Source: Apostichopus japonicus
Taxonomy: Eukaryota; Echinodermata; Holothuroidea; Aspidochirotida; Stichopodidae
Direction of reading: 5' to 3'
NCBI RefSeq assembly: GCF_037975245.1
Contig: NC_092564.1
Coordinates: 11,990,484 to 12,054,483, forward strand
Length of the DNA: 64,000 nucleotides
Shown: positions 16,489-41,443 of the stretch, in pieces
Layout of the letters: each line of letters opens with the position of its first letter
How positions within the stretch are numbered: the first letter of the stretch is position 1
Program-made: the position numbers and the translations under genes
Notes under the pieces: model-generated
Databases searched by the model: none
What the model saw: the letters and a program-made list of their open reading frames with translations, nothing else
Told to the model about the DNA's origin: nothing

Positions 16489-17073
16489 GATATACCAACC
16501 TGGAGCTGCTATCTCAGGAAGATTCTGAGCTCATTATTAAGTACTTGGTCGTAGGAATGGTGCTAAACCAAATTAGGAAATGCCTATCAACATTTTATCA
16601 AAAACATTGCGGCCATTTTAAATATAGCATATCTAAAACCTCCATAGCCGTTGCTTATTTTTCTTCATCCATGACGATTGGCCAAAATTCCAATGAAAAC
16701 GATGGAATTTTCCACTAATTACAATGTGAATACAGAATTTATTGCAGTGAAGTATCGTGATATTCTAACCAATGTCTCAGGGATATTCACTAATGAATAC
16801 AAAAAGGTTTCTCAGAGCCAATTTCAATACGCAAAAGTAGGCAAAAAACCCCTCTCTTTAGTGTAATGGGTCCATGCAGTTCAGCTTCTTCATTTTGGTT
16901 GTTTTTGTTTAAATTTGAGAAGACCATTTTAGATCCAAAAATTCACCTCAATTGGCCCAAGTTTCTTCTTATGGCACCGCCATTACCCGTTCGACCGTAT
17001 ATAGCAGTATTACGAACGTCTCCTCAATAATGTGGGTATGGCTTCTTTATTTTAACAGCAAAAAGTACCAAGG

Positions 17074-17077
<4 letters not shown>

Positions 17078-17125
<48 letters not shown>

Positions 17126-17334
17126 CATATACATAAATACGTATACATATACATAAACACATATACATAAATACATATACATAAATACATATACATAAAT
17201 ACATATACATATATACATATACATAAATACATATACATAAATACATATACATAAATACATATACATAAATACATATACATAAATACATATACATAAAAAC
17301 ATATACATAAATACATATACATAAATACATATAC
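17078..17334. repeat. (AT)n followed by 14-bp minisatellite
   Basis: About 44 bp of (AT)n passes into roughly 15 copies of the 14-base unit ATAAATACATATAC, with a few variant units. Long Tyr/Ile/Met/Cys frames on the minus strand across it are artefacts of the repeat. It abuts the donor side of exon 17370-17445 in the intron. Confidence 0.9.
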
Positions 17335-17369
17335 AGTGCATGATGACGGTACATGGATCTATTCCTTAC

Positions 17370-17445
17370 CTGTAGCCAATTGCGATTATTAGGCCGCCGA
17401 CGGCAATTAATAGTATGAAGCCAACACATATCCACCAACAAAGCT
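17370..17445 (-). CDS. internal exon: single transmembrane helix
   Basis: On the minus strand GTTTACACTACAG precedes the exon and GTAAGGAAT follows it. The 76 bases are two bases of a split codon, 24 codons and two bases of the next. They encode LC then WWICVGFILLIAVGGLIIAI and GY, an uninterrupted hydrophobic helix of membrane-spanning length. The upstream exon 18917-19072 ends with one base of a codon (A, giving AAG, Lys), and the downstream exon 7372-7486 starts with the one base needed here. Both junctions are therefore in phase. The joined protein places a Cys-rich segment outside and RRKERRK inside, a type I single-pass topology. I do not recognise the family. Confidence 0.7.
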
Positions 17446-17792
17446 CTGTAGTGTAAACAAACAAACAAAATCAAATGAAAGACACACATCATAACACTGA
17501 GGGGAAGCGATGAGAGCCAGGTCAGGCCTCGAGTAATTACGGGTATACCACTACGTCATCCCAACCCCATGTTTTGTATTGGTATTTTATTTAGTAACCT
17601 ATTTTACGAAAAATGCACTATTCTTTATCTCATATTTTCCTTTATATTTTCACGGGCCCGAGGTTGTAGCCTTCTAGATCTTAGGCCCCTCTGACCGCGT
17701 TAGGCTGGTCCACATGTTTTTTATTGGAGTTATTTTAAAATATTTTCAAACACCTCAAGATCTTCTCGCCATCTCCATCACCATCACTATTA

Positions 17793-18640
<848 letters not shown>

Positions 18641-18916
18641 TATGATTAGCCATTTCCCATCCCTCCCGCTCAACTTTAACATTTGAAATGTTTCGAAAAT
18701 GAGTTGCAGGAGTTTGCTTAAATTTTATTATTTAATAAGCTTTCTGTCGGAAAAAAACATTTACGTTTTTCTTTTTTCTCATATAATTATTTGTTATTTA
18801 GTTGGTATTTTGCGAATGACATAGACCCCCCCCCTTCCCCTGCCCGCCCAACCTTCCAACTCGCCGATCGCTGCCATTTTGCTACAATCAACCGATAAAC
18901 CGACTGACAAACTTAC

Positions 18917-28065: not shown

Positions 28066-28091
28066 TACCCGTATGGCAAGCCGTTTTACTT

Positions 28092-28405
28092 TTTATTCGA
28101 TATTTGATGATATCATCAAATATTTGGTGATATCAGCAAATAATTGTTGATATCATCAAATCATTTGATGATATCAACAATTCCAACATATCACTTATTC
28201 ATTTGCTGATATCAACAAATCAATTGGTGATATCAGTAATTGATTTAATGATATCAGCAAATGAACCGTACATATCACTAATGCATGCTTTTGTTGATAT
28301 CACCAATTCATTTGTTGATATCACCAATTCATTTGATGATATCACCAATTCATTTGCTGATATCAGTAATTCAACCGTGACGATGATATCAGTAATTCAA
28401 CCGTG
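28092..28405. repeat. left TGATATCA palindrome array
   Basis: About twelve TGATATCA-type cores at intervals of roughly 20-30 bp, each flanked by CAAAT/ATTTG or AATT words so that many units are themselves ~20-bp palindromes. Inverse counterpart of 30379-30890. Confidence 0.9.
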
Positions 28406-28474
28406 ACAGCCCGTCTGTCAGTGTACTAAGCAGTACATGCAAATGACAGTGACGAGACAACAGGGTACGGGTAG

Positions 28475-28748
28475 CGTTACTTTCACCTTGGCGATTGCGG
28501 TAAACTTGATGAAGCACAGATCGTTATTGACAGAAGTTCTCGGATTTTGGGGGAAGTAGAGAGGCTCTTAACTGGCAATGAGAATGCTTCTGAAGCGAAA
28601 GAACGTCTTCTCCAAAGCAAAGAGAAATTTAGAACGGATTAACGCGAGCATCGATGAGCACAGGTTCAATTCAATAGCAGCTGTGCACGATCAGCTCCTT
28701 TCCATCGCAGACGCACAGGCACAGCCAGACGGAACGTTGCAGCCATGA
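28475..28748 (+). pseudogene. decayed coding block of unknown origin inside the element
   Basis: After a TAG at 28472 a frame runs 55 codons to TAA at 28640 (ends ...NASEAKERLLQSKEKFRTD). Shifting by one base at about 28637 continues for 36 codons (INASIDEHRFNSIAAVHDQL, then LSIADAQAQPDGTLQP) to TGA at 28746. One frameshift would unite them into ~90 residues. The composition is charged, Leu/Ala-rich and coiled-coil-like, unlike the AT-rich surroundings. I do not recognise it. A Gag-like or captured host exon are both possible. Confidence 0.4.
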
Positions 28749-29125
28749 GCGGCGATCATGGGGGGGGGGACATATTTTAGGTGGGGGATATAGTATCTAA
28801 TATCCCCCTCCCCAATATTTGGTGGCATAGTGTTTTTGTGTGGCTATAAATAGAAAATAATGCATGAGATTATTTATCCAAATCCTATTTGGCGGTGGCT
28901 AAAACTTCATCCAACACATGCGCTATGAGGTAAATGACTCTTCGTCGTCGTTTCTGTGACCTGTGACCGTATAGCATGTTGTCACTCATGATTATTATCA
29001 TAATGTCTGTACATCTCTTGTGTATGAGTGTAAGTACGTACAATCATATATATGATCCACATCGATATGGGTTCACTGGGTCACTGGGTTTCCATTTGGC
29101 CTGTTTCCTACAAGATTTCTAACCG

Positions 29126-29749
29126 CAGGCACGTAGCCAAGTAGGGGGGGGGGGGGTGGGGCGAAGATATTTTTGTCTTTTTTAACGATATCGAAGTTTT
29201 ATATTTATAATATTTGTACACAATAAATTAACTGTGTCTGAATTTTCGAAAATTCCCTGACCAACATTCTTCATCATACTTCCCTCTACTGACCGGTCTG
29301 TTAGGGGTTGAAGGTTTTTTTTCTATATTGGTTGACCATAGATGAAATTTTGTGCAACATTTATGGATATGTTTTGAAGTGAATTTATAATTCAAATTCT
29401 GAACAAATAATGGGCTTCAAACCTTGAAAAGTGGGGCTGACGGGTATTGTATAGGCCGTTACGTAGTATTACCTTCCAAAGCAATGATCCACAGGAGAAG
29501 CGATGAGGTCGAACATGATGTGTGCATGACTGGTGACAATCTTGAAAAAGGTTATGGATAGAAGAAAAAAACTATTGGGAAAACTTGATTCTCAGGCCAA
29601 AGTATACAACTTGTTGATCATTTTCAAGCCCGAGAAGTGCCATTTCCTGTGATCTGGGGGGCTATCAAAACCAGAAATTTTCTGTGGCGCTCCGCTTAGA
29701 TAGTAATTCGATCGCGCCCCCGGGTTAGAAAATCCTGGATACACGCCTG
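29126..29749 (+). mobile_element. hAT-like MITE nested in the 6-bp-TSD element
   Basis: It starts CAGGCACGTAGCCAAG and ends TCCTGGATACACGCCTG. The right ~430 bp are a direct repeat of 1-464. The flanks TCTAACCG and TATTTATA do not match, so its target duplication has been lost, possibly because a TA microsatellite expanded next to its right end. There is no transposase. Confidence 0.75.
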
Positions 29750-29756
29750 TATTTAT

Positions 29757-29760
29757 ATAT

Positions 29761-29840
<80 letters not shown>
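29757..29840. repeat. (AT)n microsatellite
   Basis: About 75 bp of TA dinucleotides between ACACACAC borders, directly beside the right end of the hAT-like element. Confidence 0.9.
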
Positions 29841-29843
<3 letters not shown>

Positions 29844-30378
29844 AAATAACGAAGTGCGCGAACAATTTTAATTTGGGGTGGGGGAATTGTTACGCGTCTG
29901 CACCCAAGTTAAAGTCCCCCCACCCCAATATTTGAAACAAATCTCCCGCCACTGGTTGCAGCCACCATCGGGGAGCCAGTCTAATGGACACAGTTCCCAG
30001 CCTGTTTCTGTCGCCGACCAGGGTATACTTTTTACATTTTGGTATTTCATATTGAACTACTTAACCACCCCGATATTATTTTTCATAGGTTTATAGGCCT
30101 GGCCTACTCGTTGCTTGCCCAACGTTTGTCGTCCCTGTCACGAGTGCATGAGTAGCCACGGTACCTCTCCCAGTGGCAGTAGTAGTACTGTGTAACTTAG
30201 TCCCCTTTCCCCTCCCGTTGATCGCTATAACCAAGGCTGAAATTAACCGCGCACCAGGCGCCTTTCTGTGCCCGCTACCAGTCAAACAGCGCCCTTAAGA
30301 CCCAAAAAGAATGCCTGTTGATGGCGCTCGTTTCTAATTCCTTTTTGTAGACGTTGGTTCGATACGCTTGAATTACTG
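29841..30378. other. element interior, nothing recognised
   Basis: Mixed-composition sequence, less AT-rich than the flanks. Short frames on both strands lack motifs. Confidence 0.4.
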
Positions 30379-30890
30379 ATATCAGCAAATGAATTGGTGA
30401 TATCAGCAAATGAATTGTTGATATCAGCAATTCCAACATATCGCCAATTCAATTGCTGATATCAGCAAATCTTTTAATGATATCACCAAATCATTTCATG
30501 ATATCAGCAATTCGGTTCCTCATATCACTAATTAATTAGTGATATGTCGGAATTGTTGATATCAGCAAATGATTTGCTGATATCATCAATTCAATTGCTG
30601 ATATCACCAATTCATTTGCTGACATCAGCAAATATTTGTTGATATCAGCTATTATTTATTGATATCAGCAATTATTTGGTGATATCACCAAATGAATTGG
30701 TGATATCAGCAAATGAATTGCTGATATCAGCAAATGAATTGCTGATATCAACAATTATTTGCTGATATCAGCAAATAATTGTTGATATCAGCAATTATTT
30801 GATGATATCATCAAATGATTTGATGATATCAACAATTATTTGCTGATATCACCAAATATTTGATGATATCATCAAATATCGAATAAAAAG
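30379..30890. repeat. right TGATATCA palindrome array
   Basis: Roughly 25 TGATATCA-type cores, about twice the length of the left array, with a few decayed cores (CATATCAC, TGACATCA). The outermost ~100 bp are the inverse complement of the left array's outer end. Inner units have no one-to-one match, so the arrays have expanded independently. Confidence 0.9.
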
Positions 30891-31057
30891 TAAAACGGCT
30901 TGCCATATACCCGAGGATCTGTTCGATGCGAACCTAGTATCAATCGAAAGCACATTACCGCGGGCGTTCTCTTGGCAATACAGCAAATAGATACGGGAAA
31001 ATAGCTTCGTGAAAATGAGAGATACACTACTAGGCTGTTTCCTACTAGGGTCTTAAC

Positions 31058-31465
31058 CATAGGCGTATGAGGCGGGGGCGTGGGGCTACAGCCTCCCCCC
31101 CCCCCCGCCCAAAAATGTTTGTGAAAATTGGGGCAATATGCTGAGAATTTTTGGGGCACCTACTGAAAGAAAAATAATTTGCAATATGTGTTTCAATGGT
31201 TAAACTGATATTATTATTATTATCATTATTATTGTAACGACTTCCCCAATAATTATAACCAATATGGAAGGGTAATGACACGATAATGATTGTATGTTAT
31301 TGGCATGTGATATAATAACCGATAAATGCCTATATGATATGCACATTAAGATGTTGAAAGCGCGGGGAAAGCGAGGGGAGCGCGAAAAATTGTGGTTATA
31401 TTTTTCGGGCAAGTCGTTACAGCCCCCCTCCCCCCCCCCAATCAAATTAGGCTCCTACGCCTATG
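31058..31465 (+). mobile_element. hAT-like MITE, 408 bp, exact 8-bp TSD
   Basis: The termini are CATAGGCGTATGAGG and GCTCCTACGCCTATG. GTCTTAAC is exactly duplicated at 31050-31057 and 31466-31473. The interior has C-rich ends, an ATT run near 31209 and no coding capacity. The terminal sequence differs from the other families here, so this is a separate family. Confidence 0.9.
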
Positions 31466-31473
31466 GTCTTAAC

Positions 31474-32818
31474 ACGACTAGGCAAACGCGCATGTTAGGG
31501 CGCAAACGAAGACGAGACTCTGCCATGTATGTTAAACAATTATAGAAGAAACGGAATCTGTTTGTTTATGATATTTATTTATTTTGGTTCTATGCAAGTC
31601 TCATCATAGTTATAGTTTTTTGTGATGCGGTATCCCGTAATTATGTGTTATCTGGTTTTATTGGCGTTCCATAGCAAATAAGTTCATTTCAAAGATGAAT
31701 TTATTTTAGAAAGAAAAAACTTAATTCTTTGCAGACGACAACATCATTTTGAAAAACGTTTATAGGAAAACAGTAGCAATGACTTTAGTTTTAGACAACA
31801 ACAGAGTCGATCCTTTTTGGCGTTTCCATAGAAATACTGGCTGCTTGTTCTATACATTTCTAATTATAGATATTAATATGTTACAATTAAATTTTCAATG
31901 ATAAGTCGAGTCGATAATATCGGAATAAATCATGTTTGAAAGGATCTTGCTTTGCAAAACCAAACGATTTGATGATTTCAGAAAATTGTGTGATCAATGA
32001 TAATGATATAAATAACATAAGAAGAAATTTCGAGAGGAGTTTTAGTAAGCTTCTATCTCAAAAATGCTTGTCTAAGACGTTTTAGAACCAAAGTGTCGAT
32101 GTAGGGTGGTCGGGTGAGGGTGGGTGGGAGTAAGTGGTGAGGTTATACTACGTACATGACCGTTTAAGGGTAGCTGTTTAAGATTATATCCGTTTCGTAT
32201 AGAAACGATAACTCGGTTTCAAACTGATGTTAGTCAAATATGTAGTCAGCGTAGTACAGGCTGTATACCAGCAATGAACGCCCATCGACGTTTGAGGGTA
32301 CAGATATTCTGTCAAATATGGGTAGTATAGTAAAGCGGCCTATATAGCAAACAACACTCTGCCTCCGGGGTTAGCACAGTAAAATAATGTATGCCTCTAT
32401 ATACATATATTATCCATAACAGTATACGTGCGGTATACCCTATAGAGTTCTGTACCGTCTGAAGGAGCACTATATAATACTTGATAATGAAAGTGTGAGA
32501 ACGTCCTGTGACTCATGGTTCTCAGATTGTTCAGGGAGTATGTACAGTTATACTCAGGAAGCTCATGGGCATTCCCCTGTCAGTCTGCACTATAACCATA
32601 TACACCCTGTTGGGACAATTCGGTAACGGTAGTTAACACGACAAACGGTATGCAAAAGCCATGCAGAATAGTTAGTAGCTGGTCTAGCGTATATAGTAAT
32701 GACGTTACTCGTATTAATGTTGCATTGTATGATCTTGGCTAGCCATGATATTTATCACTGTGTAGGAAATACCATTAACGTTTAACTTTACTCCAGTTCA
32801 TTTGTCCGGTCCAATATT
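31474..32818. other. no gene recognised (1.3 kb)
   Basis: AT-rich anonymous sequence; one GGGTGGTCGGGTGAGGGTGG tract near 32105. Nothing else supported. Confidence 0.4.
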
Positions 32819-33055
32819 TAAATAAATATCGTATGGCAGCCATAATGCATGAACGATACTTAGACAGCAGATATACGTATACCTTCATATATACACTTAA
32901 CCTACTGCTCATAAGTTATACTCACTCTCACATGATCCTACCCAAGAATACGGCCAAAGACAACCATTTAAATCGGCAGGAAAGTAAATAATTCAAGCAG
33001 AATGGAAGAATACAGCTCCGTGTTGCATTCTCTGCTAATGTGTTCGCAAATAATA
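32819..33055 (+). repeat. ~230-bp dispersed repeat, copy 2
   Basis: Direct partner of 26814-27042. Copy 2 has small insertions (for example ATACGTATACCTTC) but otherwise tracks copy 1 through to TGTGTTCGCAAATAAT. The two copies lie on opposite sides of the 28072-30907 element, about 6 kb apart. Confidence 0.8.
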
Positions 33056-33355
33056 GAAAGGATTCAAAATTTATGCAACTGTACTGCTAATCGTTATTGA
33101 TACGACTCATACGACAGCATATGTTTAGAAAACAAGTATATCCTACCCTTGTTGAACTGAAATCTTCTCGAAGTCAGGTAAGCCCCTTCTTTGCTGATGT
33201 TTTATAAATCTTTTTAAAGTTTCGCACGTTAGCTTTCGTCGTCGTATGAGTTTCTGCAGGATCCGCGGCGTTAATTGAATGACCTGGTACGGGTATTATT
33301 GTACAGTTGTGCGGCCATATGGCAAGCCGTTTTAACATTTACCTCTCTATTCTAC

Positions 33356-33806
33356 TTAAGTAGAATTAATTCCACTTAAGTAGAATACAATTAAGCTTAA
33401 GTAAAATGAATTGCACTTAAGTAGAATTGCATTTTACTTAAGTTTAATTGTATTCCACTTAAGTAAAATTACCACTTTCTTTTAAGCTTAAGTTAAATTC
33501 AATTTCACTTAAGCTTAAATGTATTCTACTTAAGTAAAATACAATTCTACTTAAGTAAAATTTAATTTAGCTTAAGTAAAAGTGTCATTCTTTTTCACTT
33601 AAGCTAAATTGCATTTTACTTAAGTAAAATTGTATTTTACTTAAGTAGAATACAATTAAGCTTAAGTGAAATTGAATTTAACTTAAGCTAAATTGTATTC
33701 TACTTAAGTAGAATTGTATTTTACTTAAGTATAATACAATTGCATTTTACTTAAGTAAAATTCAATTCTACTTAAGTAAAATACAATTTAGCTTAAGTGG
33801 AATTGA
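33356..33806. repeat. left ACTTAAGT palindrome array
   Basis: About 21 CTTAAG cores in 450 bp, in variants ACTTAAGT, GCTTAAGT and ACTTAAGC, separated by A/T words such as AGAATTGTATT. At its inner end, near 33814, TATGGCAAGCCGTTATAACA repeats the element's outer terminus in the same orientation. Confidence 0.9.
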
Positions 33807-34041
33807 AGGATATGGCAAGCCGTTATAACATTTTCCTCGTGCGGAGAAGTGGTTGGTCTGGGGGCAATGTTTACATGCATGGTATGGAACGCGAAAAGGG
33901 CAAACTTATTTCGTTGCTGAGTTTAACATAAGTTAGACAACGACGTAAGTTTAGACAACGGAATTTTAGACATCAACGTGAGTTTGAGCAACAGCATGGT
34001 AAAACAGCAGCAACAATTTTAGTTTAGGCACGTTCCATAGC

Positions 34042-34320
34042 ATGGTACCATGCCTTGTGATACTTCTACTACTAGTACCACTGATTAATGGTATGTCGTG
34101 TTGTAGTCGTTACCTTGCCCTCAAAAGTGCTTTTCCAACTGCATCAGCAACAGTTTGCAACGATTTATTGGCTGGCTGCATTTACCAATGTCTAACGTTC
34201 AGACTCAGTGATAAACATAGCTTTGCTTCATTTGCTAAGTATGGTGTTATGTTCGTATATACACAACGAAAGCTGGATAAGTATCGCAGAATGGGGGAAT
34301 GGCCGCAAATGGTTACGTAA
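34042..34320 (+). CDS. small open frame with signal-peptide-like start, uncertain
   Basis: 92 codons from ATG to TAA. The first ~18 residues (MVPCLVILLLLVPLINGM) look like a signal peptide with a plausible cleavage after Gly/Met, followed by a Cys-bearing stretch (SCC, VCNDLLAGCIYQC) and a basic, aromatic C-terminus. It sits inside the ACTTAAGT element between the two arrays. There is no family match I recognise and no promoter or splice evidence. A chance frame is quite possible; the length is not exceptional for this window. Confidence 0.25.
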   Translation: MVPCLVILLLLVPLINGMSCCSRYLALKSAFPTASATVCNDLLAGCIYQCLTFRLSDKHSFASFAKYGVMFVYTQRKLDKYRRMGEWPQMVT

Positions 34321-34342
34321 CTAGTACGTCTTGAACGTAACT

Positions 34343-34806
34343 CTATAGGTCTCGCATCACAATTAATTGTTCTATTGACTTACACACTAAACTCATCACT
34401 TTCAAGACCTGCCAAAACATAGATAGAAGTTTTCATCTGGTATATCCTACCCACCACATGATAGCTGTGTTTTTGGCCTATCATGGCACTTGCAAACTTT
34501 CATATCATGACCGTTTAGATTATGAGCTAGAAGAGGAGCAAGTTTATCACACTGAACCCTTCCATATGCTCGTTCGGAGTAATATCAACATTTAACCAAA
34601 GATTTTTTAAAATGGTTTATATCACCTTCGATCCTCCCTATTTTCACACCATCTGTACTTAAAATTATGCTCTTTCACATAAAGGCAGAAAAAACTATGA
34701 CAGTAAATGATAACATGCTTAAGGAAGCTTTACGTTAGGTACTTTTACCTCTTTTCTGACAATGGTAAACCTATTGAGCGGATGAACACGTGGTGAGGCA
34801 CCTAAA
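34343..34806 (+). repeat. dispersed repeat related to 52434-52915
   Basis: Shares with 52434-52915, in the same orientation, ATTGACTTACACACTAAA, TAGAAGTTTTCA, ATCATGGCAC-like and GAGCGGATG words in the same order over ~460 bp, at perhaps 65-70 percent identity by eye. The borders resemble TAGGTCTCGCATCAC and GAGGCACCTAAAA. Probably an older, TTAA-type non-autonomous element nested in the array element. Confidence 0.55.
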
Positions 34807-34879
34807 ATAGTATACAGAGTCGGACTTCGCGGCAAGTACAGTAACGCAATGAGTAGCATATACTGATTGACCAATCACA

Positions 34880-35307
34880 TTTTACTTAAGCTAAATTGCA
34901 TTTTACTTAAGTGAAATAGATTGACCAATCACATTTCACTTAAGCGTAATTCTATTTCACTTAAGTAAAATGCAATTTAGCTTAAGTGAAATTGAAAAGC
35001 CATTTTGCATAAGTAGAATAGCATTTTACTTAAGTAGAATTGAATTTTACTTAAGCAGAATTGCATTCTACTTAAGTAGAATTGAATTTTACTTAAGCAG
35101 AATTGTATTTTACTTAAGTAGAATTGTATTTTACTTAAGTAAAATACGATGTAGACAAAAACCGTTTGAACTTAAGCTAATATGAATTCCACTTAAGTGG
35201 AATACAATAAAGCTTAAGTAAAATGCAATTCTACTTAAGTGCAATTCATTTCACTTAAGCTTAATTGTATTCTACTTAAGTGGAATTAATTCTACTTAAG
35301 TAGAATA
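34880..35307. repeat. right ACTTAAGT palindrome array
   Basis: About 18 CTTAAG cores with spacing of ~20-25 bp. The outer end is the inverse complement of the left array; the inner units differ. A frame of repeated YLSRIEF-like peptides arises only from the repeat. Confidence 0.9.
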
Positions 35308-35343
35308 GAGAGGTAAATGTTAAAACGGCTTGCCATACGGCCA

Positions 35344-37762: not shown

Positions 37763-40700
37763 ATTCAACCGTAGGCATTTGTCACCAGAAATAAACGACA
37801 AAGGCAATTTTTTCTCCGTTTCATTTATTCACGATTATTAAACATGTATGTGGTACATCGATTATATTTAGAGTTCTGATAACAACATAGATATGTCATC
37901 TGGATGATACAATGGAATTATTAACATAATGTGAAAATTGATTCTGAATTGAGTATTTCTTCTTCTCCACTTATACCGAAATATATGTAAACATATCCAG
38001 AAAAACATAGATGATAAGCAGAGGTTAAGTCAAGAGTCGCAAAGTTCATTGATTGAATGAGAAAAACAAGTCTTTAATGCCATGTATTTTCTACGAGCAG
38101 AGCTAGTAGAGTTTCGCTTCGAGGCAATGTGCTTCTCAACGTTAAGAATGAATTTCATTTTATAGAAGAAATTGTAGCAGTTTTGTTTACAATTGATGAT
38201 AAAGATCGGAATTCAACTGTAGGCATTTATCACCAGAAATAAACGACAAAGGCAAATAAATAAATATATATATATATAAAATTGTAGAGATATTTCATCA
38301 ATAATCCTATATACAATTGTATATACTAGCCACACACACAAATAAGGTTTATAAAGAAAATAAAGTAATAATGTAAATAGAGAAAATAAAGTAATAATGT
38401 AAATAGAGTAAAATAGGTAATAATGTAAATATAGTAAATAAAGTAATGATGTAAATAGAGTAAATAGAATATGGTATAAGTAAATAAAGTAAATAAAATT
38501 AAAAGTAAATAAAATATACATATATCAAAAGTAATAATGTAAATAAAGTAACAATGCAAATAAAGTAAATGAAGGCACATTTGTCACCTGTATCGACCAA
38601 TGCGAATTCTGTTTTGGTGACAAATATTGCCTTACTCTACAAGGATCTCTATAAAGATCTCTATTAAGTAAATAATGTAAATAGAGTGAATAAAGTAATA
38701 ACGTTAAGAGAGTAAATAAAGTAATAATGTAAACAAAGTAAATAAAGTTATGATGTAAATAAAGTAATGATGTAAATAGAGTGAATAGAGTATGGTATAA
38801 GTAAATAAAGTAAATAAAATATAAAGTAAATAAAATATAAAAATATAAAAAGTAATAATGTAAATAAGGTAACAATGTAAATAAAGGAAATGTAGGCATT
38901 TGTCACCAGTATCCAACGATGCAAATTCTGTTTTGGTGACAAATATTTGCTTACTCTATAAAGATCTCTATAACGTAAATAAAGTAAATGTAGTAAATAA
39001 AGTAAAGTAAATAAAGAAAGTAAATAAAGCTAATAAGGTAAATAAAGTAACTAAAGTAAATAAAGAAGATAAAGAAAGTAAAGTAAATAAGGTAAATAAA
39101 GTAAATAAAGTAACTGAAGTCAATAAAGTCAATGAAGTAAAATGAAGTAAAAATATGTAAAATGAAGTAAAATAATAAAAAAATAAAGAAAGTAAAGAAA
39201 ATAAAGAAAAAATGAAAATAAAGAAAATAAAGTATGTAATGTACATAACTTTTTATGATGTTAATATAGTAAATATAGTAAATAAAGTAATAAAAGTAAA
39301 GTAAATTAAGTAAATAAAGTATATTAAGTATATATAGTACATATAGTATATATAGTAAATATAGTATATATAGTATATAAATAGTAAGTATATATAGTAA
39401 TAAAGTATATATAATAAAGTAAATAAAGTCAAGAAAGTAAAATGAAGTCAATGAAGTAAAATGAAGTAAAATGAAAGAAAATAAAGAAAATAAAGTAAAT
39501 AAAGTAAATAAAGTAAATAAAGTAAATAAAGTAAATAAAGTAAATAAAGAAAATAAAGAAAATAAAGTAAATAAAGTAAGTAAAGTAAGTAAAGTATGTA
39601 AAATGAAAAGTGAATAGAGTAAATAAAGTAATTGTAGGCACATTTGTCACCAGTATCGAATAATGCGATTTCTGTTGGTGATAAATATTGCCTTACTCTA
39701 TCGAGATCTGTATTGAGAAGCCGGATCTCGAAAGAGAAACTTCGAAAAGACTCTGTTATATGAAATTGAACGACAAAGGCTAATAAATATACATATACTT
39801 AAAATTTTAGAGATAGTTCATTAATAATTCTATAAACAATTGTATATACAAGCAACACACACGCACGCACACACATACATATACATAGATAGAATTCTAT
39901 GTAATTGTACATACAAACCACACAAATACACGCACACGCATACATATATATATATAAATAAGTAATTAAAGGAAATAGAGTAAATAGAGTAAATAAAGTA
40001 AATAGAGTAAATAAAGTAAATAAAGTAAAATGAAGTAAAATGAAGTTAAATAAAAGAAAATAAAGAAAAGAAAGTAAATAAAGTAAATAAATTTAATAAA
40101 ATAGATAAAGTAAGTAAAGTAAATAAAGTGAATAGAGTAAATAAAGTAATTGTAGGCACATTTGTCACCAGTATCGAACAATGCGAATTCTGTTTTTGTG
40201 ACAAATATTGCATTACTCTATCGAGATGGATCTCGAAAGAGAAACTTCAATAAGACTCTGTTATATGAAATTGAACGACAAAGGCTAATAAATATATACT
40301 TAAAATTTTATATACAAGCAACACACACACACGCACGCCAACACACACACACATATATAAATAGAATTCTGTATAATTGTACATACAAACCACACACACA
40401 CACGCACACGCACACATTTATATATATATAATAAATAAATAAAGTAAATAGAGTAAATAGAGTAAATAAAGTCAATAAAGTCAATAAAGCAAAATGAAAT
40501 AAAATAAAATAAAGAAAATAAAGAAATTAAAGGAAATAAAGAAAATAAAGTAACTAAAGTAAATAAAATAAATGAAGTAAATAAAATATATAAAGCAAAT
40601 AAAGTAAAAAAGAGTCAACAAAGTCAATAAAGTAAAATGAAGTAAAATAAAGAAAATAAAGTAAAAAAAGTAAATAAAGTATGTAAAATGAAAAGTGAAT

Positions 40701-40843
40701 AAAGTAATTGTAGGCACATTTGTCACCAGTATCGAACAATGCAAATTCTGTTTTGGTGACAAATATTGCATTACTATCGAGATGGATCTCGAAAGAGAAA
40801 CTTCGAAAAGACTCTGTTATATGAAATTGAACGACAAAGGCTA

Positions 40844-40894
<51 letters not shown>

Positions 40895-41345
40895 GGTTTG
40901 TACATACAAACCACACACACACACACAAATACATATATATATATGTATATATATATATAGATATATATATACATATATATTCATATATATACATATATAT
41001 ATATATATATAGAGTAAATAGAGTCAATAAAGTCAATAAAGTAAAATGAAATAAAATAAATAAAATAAAGGAAATAAAGAAAATAAAGAAAATAAAGAAA
41101 ATAAAGTAAATAAAATAAATAATGTAAATAAAGTAAATAACGTAAATAAAGTAAATAAAGTAAATAAAGTAAGTAAAGTAAATAAAGTGAATAAAGTGAA
41201 TAGAGTAAATAAAGTAATTGTAGGCACATTTGTCACCAGTATCGAACAATGCGAATTCTGTTTGTGGCAAATATTGCCTCTATCGACTCTATCGAGATCT
41301 GTATTGAGAAGCCGGATCTCGAAAGAGAAACTTCGAAAAGTTATA
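37763..41345. repeat. composite repeat: AAATAAAG minisatellite with 8 hairpin modules
   Basis: Long tracts of GTAAATAAA units alternate with a ~75-150-bp module that starts GTAGGCA at 37771, 38219, 38571, 38892, 39634, 40152, 40710 and 41220. In the best copies the module contains ATTTGTCACCA and, about 27 bases on, TGGTGACAAAT, an 11-bp perfect inverted repeat. It is followed by TCTCGAAAGAGAAACTTCGA and TATATGAAATTGAACGACAA. The last four copies are spaced 510-560 bp, so the module plus minisatellite behaves as a higher unit. AT and CA microsatellites are interspersed (40847-41015, 40320-40420). Tyr/Leu/Phe-rich minus-strand frames here are repeat translation. Confidence 0.9.
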
Positions 41346-41443
41346 AAATTGAGCGACAAGAGATATCGATATTCCAGCTCTGCTTTCTCATTGATGTAGT
41401 AGTTACTCCTTGTAGTATAGTCTACACATCCTCACCCTACACA

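What the first reader, a model, noticed from the sequence alone, without database searches (positions are those of the whole stretch)
28072..35337. Two transposons with one 17-bp terminus, 6-bp target duplications and inverted palindrome-array ends
Elements 28072-30907 and 33318-35337 both begin and end with TATGGCAAGCCGTTTTA and have exact 6-bp duplications (TACCCG; CGGCCA). Each has >100 bp of near-identical inverted terminal sequence made of closely spaced palindromes. The boundaries, duplications and terminal identity are directly visible. Such ends look like multi-site binding platforms for a transposase or host factor. I know no named family with this design. I recall 6-bp duplications in IS3EU, Dada and Maverick/Polinton, and the 5'-TAT end would suit IS3EU.
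Basis: partly seen in the sequence, partly recalled or inferred. Interest (0 to 1): 0.85.

Follow-up and report, generated by a model that had tools for sequence, protein, structure and literature searches.

The report
IS3EU transposons with palindrome-array ends
The two segments are small, defective copies of large jumping genes of a known but little-studied type (IS3EU); their ends carry long rows of evenly spaced palindromes, in two sequence versions, that probably act as docking sites for the enzyme that moves them.

Summary
The host genome (671.6 Mb, species unnamed) holds 571 exact 17-mers, 0 of the reversed control. Of 30 tip pairs with both flanks read, 26 have exact 6-bp duplications.

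The autonomous partners were found: 7 of the 9 listed tip pairs of 15 kb or more enclose an integrase-core (rva_4) transposase; 0.04 expected by chance over all 73 listed pairs. TAYGG..CCRTA ends, 6-bp duplications and an HHCC-less DDE transposase match IS3EU/GingerRoot.

I did not find the end design in print: 12-21 palindromes per end in the window copies, pitch 20-21 bp, first core 37 bp from the tip. Two versions (TGATATCA; ACTTAAGT) share tip, offset and pitch but belong to different transposase clades: cores 51-53% identical, HTH exons 38-42%.

Most likely the arrays bind dimers of the transposase's Hin/resolvase-like HTH. No binding was tested; this is inference. Verdict: new variant of a known kind.

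The parts
28066..28071 (.). target duplication of element 1, left (TACCCG)
28072..30907 (.). element 1: 2,836-bp non-autonomous IS3EU-type element of the GATATC version
28072..28088 (+). left tip TATGGCAAGCCGTTTTA
28109..28390 (.). left palindrome array, 12 GATATC cores, first core 37 bp from the tip, pitch mostly 20-21 bp
30378..30870 (.). right palindrome array, 21 GATATC cores, last core 37 bp from the right tip
30891..30907 (-). right tip
30908..30913 (.). target duplication of element 1, right (TACCCG)
33312..33317 (.). target duplication of element 2, left (CGGCCA)
33318..35337 (.). element 2: 2,020-bp non-autonomous IS3EU-type element of the CTTAAG version; an internal-deletion derivative of the 22.7-kb type
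33318..33334 (+). left tip
33355..33797 (.). left palindrome array, 21 CTTAAG cores, first core 37 bp from the tip
33811..33827 (+). internal, one-mismatch copy of the tip (TATGGCAAGCCGTTATA) at a deletion junction
34885..35300 (.). right palindrome array, 18 CTTAAG cores
35321..35337 (-). right tip
35338..35343 (.). target duplication of element 2, right (CGGCCA)

Best explanation
Both elements are non-autonomous members of two related families of IS3EU/GingerRoot-type DNA transposons. They are moved by transposases encoded in about 16-26-kb relatives elsewhere in the genome. SHOWN: common tip, 6-bp duplications, transposase gene inside long copies, two palindrome versions, fixed geometry. 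INFERRED: the transposase's Hin/resolvase-like HTH with a GRPK/GRPR arm binds each 20-bp palindrome as a dimer. Sites two helical turns apart load many dimers on one face of the DNA, and this assembly places the DDE domain on the terminal TATGG 37 bp away. The tip is the shared cutting site; the array is the family-specific address.
For: Tips: 571 exact 17-mers against 0 in the control. Duplications: four of these seven elements were read (22.7, 20.8, 20.8, 20.4 kb), with exact duplications CGGCCG, AGTACG, CGCCCG and CTCCCG. Geometry: first core at exactly 37 bp in 19 of 19 GATATC tips and 31 of 36 CTTAAG tips; pitch 20-21 bp in 80% of 371 and 76% of 651 spacings (66 fetched tips, 11 with fewer than 6 cores dropped). 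Constraint: stepping one pitch from each exact core of the window arrays lands on another exact core in 25 of 33 and 31 of 38 cases, while the positions just outside the 8-bp core carry 0-0.6 bit. Protein: the transposase has an HTH_7 domain above Pfam's cut-off in both versions with a GRP[KR] arm as in Hin (weak phmmer match to 1hcr, E 0.94). HTH exons of the GATATC elements are 38-42% identical to that of the CTTAAG element, catalytic cores 51-53%.
Against: No binding or transposition data. The lower HTH identity does not by itself show changed specificity; the HTH letters of only one element per version were read (L081, L092). About half of the 22.7-kb element and most of the other long ones were not read, so another element-encoded or host protein could be the array binder. 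Two of nine long pairs (C13 16.2 kb, C14 17.7 kb) and the five 9-kb pairs have no rva_4 match, which scored 150 of 224 candidates. The 16.4-kb element has one tip with a mismatch. Array blocks are broken by spacings that are not whole pitches (26-58 bp). 11 of 66 tips have few or no cores.
Confidence: 0.62

Rival explanations
1. The elements are IS3EU transposons, but the arrays bind host transcription or chromatin factors (enhancer, insulator or nucleosome-excluding platform) rather than the transposase.
For: The cores are short dyads of a kind that many host factors read (general knowledge); arrays persist in non-autonomous copies.
Against: Two unrelated core sequences keep the same 37-bp offset and 20-21-bp pitch next to the terminal tip, which fits one machine with changed specificity better than two host factors. 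The transposase itself carries an HTH.
Confidence: 0.2
2. The arrays are functionless satellite-like expansions of the inverted ends by slippage or gene conversion; fixed offset and pitch reflect common descent.
For: Unusual spacings recur between copies; blocks are interrupted; some copies have few cores.
Against: The two versions differ in sequence but not in geometry. Core positions stay exact while adjacent positions vary within the same repeats; recent homogenisation should conserve both alike (inference).
Confidence: 0.13
3. The palindromes act as hairpins or cruciforms (foldback-type structure) rather than protein sites.
For: The arrays are rich in inverted repeats.
Against: Flanking half-sites do not covary significantly within units: element 1 observed 176 of 238 against 175.7 expected, p 0.51; element 2 190 of 280 against 182.1, p 0.12.
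Confidence: 0.05

Closest known systems
[quoted passage not shown] PMC10045372, PMC12730594)
   Same: TA..TA termini, here of the form TAYGG..CCRTA described in fungi; 6-bp duplications; DDE integrase-type transposase without an HHCC domain.
   Different: The passages read report TIRs 'longer than 30 bps' for fungal members and mention no palindrome arrays; of 35 held papers naming IS3EU, 3 also contain 'palindrom', in the passages seen none in this sense.
Galileo and Foldback-like elements of Drosophila (P superfamily; PMC3688188)
   Same: Works alike: long inverted ends with repeated secondary transposase-binding sites (THAP sites shown by footprint and EMSA), short conserved terminus, family-specific long ends.
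   Different: Different superfamily (7-8-bp duplications, P-type transposase); three THAP sites were identified in the Galileo-G end, against 12-21 dyads per end in the window copies at near-constant pitch.
Hin/resolvase HTH (PF02796; PDB 1hcr)
   Same: HTH_7 with a preceding GRPK/GRPR arm in both transposases.
   Different: Sequence match to solved structures is weak (E 0.94); the catalytic domain is an integrase-type DDE, not a serine recombinase.
Bacterial IS3 family
   Same: DDE integrase core with an HTH in front (recalled); IS3EU/GingerRoot was analysed with IS3 and IS481 in PMC10045372.
   Different: IS3 ends in TG..CA; no such arrays known to me (recalled).

Membership tests
IS3EU/GingerRoot | TA..TA termini (TAYGG..CCRTA in described fungal families) | tested here: met
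   TATGG..CCATA in both window elements and the four long copies read; definition
IS3EU/GingerRoot | 6-bp target duplications (usual) | tested here: met
   26 of 30 pairs exact; L047 has 5 bp, L049/L050 one mismatch (not true outer pairs), one pair in L040 has inverted flanks
IS3EU/GingerRoot | DDE integrase-type transposase in autonomous copies | tested here: met
   rva_4 E 3e-75 in the 22.7-kb element; 7 of 9 listed pairs of 15 kb or more; candidate D, D and E residues (assignment inferred)
IS3EU/GingerRoot | no HHCC zinc domain upstream of the core | tested here: met
   HTH_7 found; no zinc domain on the coding strand of the 8.9 kb read
IS3EU/GingerRoot | transposase groups with Repbase IS3EU or GingerRoot proteins in a tree | not testable with these tools
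   Repbase not held; GingerRoot paper not held
Polinton/Maverick | integrase plus DNA polymerase B and capsid genes (recalled) | tested here: inconclusive
   No such domain in the parts of the 22.7-kb element scanned: minus strand of the right 8.9 kb, both strands of the left 2.2 kb. The plus strand of the right part and 11.5 kb in the middle were not scanned.
Dada | Dada-type transposase (recalled) | tested here: not met
   Transposase is of the integrase (rva_4) type
Galileo/P superfamily | THAP + P-type transposase, 7-8-bp duplications | tested here: not met
   6-bp duplications; rva_4 core with HTH_7; definition

The most novel reading that the evidence does not exclude
A modular transposon end: an invariant cutting tip plus a swappable address array. 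A palindrome version co-diverges with the transposase HTH while the 37-bp offset and two-turn pitch are held fixed, so related families with one identical tip are kept orthogonal by a geometry-locked, many-dimer filament on each end.
Probability: 0.4. Interest if true: 0.8.

Novelty: new variant of a known kind. Interest (0 to 1): 0.58.

Why it matters
None of the 35 titles found for IS3EU is a study of a purified IS3EU transposase. Here two related families in one genome have the same terminal tip, 51-53% identical catalytic cores, more different DNA-binding exons and different palindromes at identical positions. That is a ready-made natural experiment on how transposases and their ends co-evolve, with exact sequences to test.

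Tried and rejected
Rejected: Dada and, less firmly, Polinton (the transposase is rva_4; no polymerase or capsid domain in the parts scanned). Hairpin function (no significant covariation). A viral carrier: alignment A1 matched 58 stretches of viral contigs by pattern, none confirmed; three viral contigs hold a lone 17-mer without arrays. The 9-kb copies were first taken for autonomous: L034 has no Pfam transposase in six frames, only a sub-cut-off match to REX1B, and L031 carries a non-LTR retrotransposon. L049/L050 looked like array-less elements but are internal-tip copies. L042/L048, whose right ends seemed array-less, carry a TTAA-flanked insert. A one-mismatch flank pair 133/4540 in L040 was taken as chance, because 4540 pairs exactly with 2667. 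The structure job had not finished at the last of twelve collecting calls. Genome contigs was not scanned. Host species not identified.

Paper searches. Seen: passages of PMC10045372 and its section 3.3; passages of PMC12730594, PMC3688188, PMC9587614, PMC8268682, PMC4168063; search listings otherwise.
Full report
OBSERVATION. Inverted ends are 109 nt at 99% in element 1 and 158 nt at 96% in element 2, of which 153 lie inside the element. The inner sequence is made of palindromes: GATATC cores in element 1 (34 of the 46 in the window), CTTAAG cores in element 2 (40 of 51). From the column make-up the units read ATTTGNTGATATCANCAAAT and AATTNNACTTAAGTNNAATT.

GENOME-WIDE CHECK. The window lies in a 671.6-Mb genome in 35 contigs, species unnamed. 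It holds 571 exact 17-mers and none of the reversed control (first 100 listed). Two extended tip patterns were listed by place: GATATC-type (93 places, all listed) and CTTAAG-type (102 places, first 100 listed). Neighbouring tips closer than 30 kb are convergent in 37 of 40 and 36 of 39 cases. A further CTTAAG subtype has 159 places (first 100 listed). The 73 pairs include classes near 3.15 kb, 9.1 kb and 1.89 kb, and nine pairs of 15 kb or more.

DUPLICATIONS. Both flanks of 30 pairs were read (25, one, three, and one in L040 without a direct duplication). 26 have exact 6-bp duplications. Exceptions: L047 has 5 bp (GTGAC); L049 and L050 differ by one base and are internal-tip copies, not true pairs; one pair in L040 has inverted flanks. 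Counting the loci L035/L036, which share one duplication, once, 25 duplications have 71% G+C against 36% in the window. 18 of 25 have CG at positions 1-2 or 5-6, against 5.1% of window hexamers, so insertion prefers CG-bounded sites.

TRANSPOSASE. The Pfam family rva_4 (PF24764, integrase core) gives 143 matches in the genome, with 150 of 224 candidates scored. I took 71 of these positions, roughly one per cluster. Seven lie inside listed tip pairs, where 0.04 would be expected. They are in five GATATC-type elements (26.0, 20.8, 20.8, 20.4 and 16.4 kb, the last with one tip carrying a mismatch) and two CTTAAG-type elements (22.7 and 21.4 kb). Two long pairs (16.2 and 17.7 kb) have none. The 22.7-kb element has duplication CGGCCG on both sides and CTTAAG arrays at both ends. 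Three GATATC-type long elements have exact duplications, and the one read further inward shows the array. The gene in the 22.7-kb element is spread over several reading frames, taken as exons: HTH_7 (E 3e-5), the start of the rva_4 domain (HMDGH) and the rest of the core (E 3e-75) with SDQGGEN and IER motifs. Element 2 is an internal-deletion derivative of this type. Its left 494 bp match the right end (84%) and its right 529 bp the left end (88%) of the 22.7-kb element. These matches are partly array, but a non-array stretch (724-1026 of the element) also matches at 86%. Element 1 matches the 9-kb copies at about 95% over 2.1 kb; whether these derive from the 20-kb type was not tested.

TWO VERSIONS, ONE GEOMETRY. 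On 66 distinct fetched tips with at least 500 nt of inner sequence (chosen by place and by pair, not at random), 11 had fewer than six cores and were dropped. Of the rest, 19 of 19 GATATC tips and 31 of 36 CTTAAG tips have the first core exactly 37 bp from the tip. The other five start at 57-60. The commonest spacings are 20 and 21 bp in both versions (80% of 371, 76% of 651). The transposases of the two versions form separate clades: L057/58/62/63 (with L076 by DNA) and L051/L052, with 51-53% identical cores. The HTH exon differs more, at 38-42%, including the recognition helix as placed by the Hin match. Sister loci L056 and L067 fall in the same supported group (0.97) but their ends were not read.

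HOW IT MOST LIKELY WORKS. Inference from anatomy: the DDE domain cuts at the shared TATGG tip. The HTH, with an arm like that of Hin (PF02796 over the cut-off in both; weak match to 1hcr), reads each half of a palindrome. The AT-rich outer positions would suit the arm and the core the helix. Two-turn pitch puts the dimers of a block on one face. Half-sites do not covary significantly (p 0.51 and 0.12), which argues for independently read protein half-sites and against hairpins. The array would provide avidity and address, as multiple THAP sites are argued to do in Galileo. No step of binding or transposition was tested.

COMPARISON. IS3EU is described with TA..TA ends and usually 6-bp duplications, in fungi with TAYGG..CCRTA, and without an HHCC domain. 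The features that could be tested are met; placement in a tree with Repbase proteins could not be. Array ends are not mentioned in the passages read; of 35 held papers naming IS3EU, three contain 'palindrom', in the passages seen none in this sense. Subscription papers and Repbase entries were not available, so this is not proof of absence.

VERDICT. Real, genuinely transposons, IS3EU-type; the novelty is the paired-version, geometry-locked array end. New variant of a known kind.

Noticed in passing
L040 (C1:11140950-11147700), tips at 692, 1582, 1593, 5112: Cluster of several tip-bearing elements; the flank of one tip is the reverse complement of the flanks of its neighbours, as after a local inversion between copies.
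   Followed up: partly
C1:11142531/11142542, C1:11146046/11146061, C2:18661360/18661380: Back-to-back tips only 10-19 bp apart: repeated insertion beside existing copies.
   Followed up: partly
L042 and L048: A TTAA-flanked repeat beginning AGCAGCATTTTGCG sits in a CTTAAG palindrome and in the TTTTAA of a tip: the arrays can serve as landing pads for a TTAA-targeting element.
   Followed up: partly
window 33811-33839; also L035, L036, L043, L044, L046: An internal tip copy marks a deletion junction between the left array and interior sequence; L035, L046, L049 and L050 keep CGGTCG before it, a sequence also present at that place in the 22.7-kb element.
   Followed up: partly
genome contig C17: A large share of the rva_4 transposase matches listed lies on C17.
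   Followed up: no
L031 4132-7017: A non-LTR retrotransposon frame with reverse transcriptase and endonuclease domains lies inside the 9.45-kb GATATC-type copy.
   Followed up: no
window 17024-18649 and 38525-41431: Simple-repeat and low-complexity stretches giving spurious reading frames.
   Followed up: no
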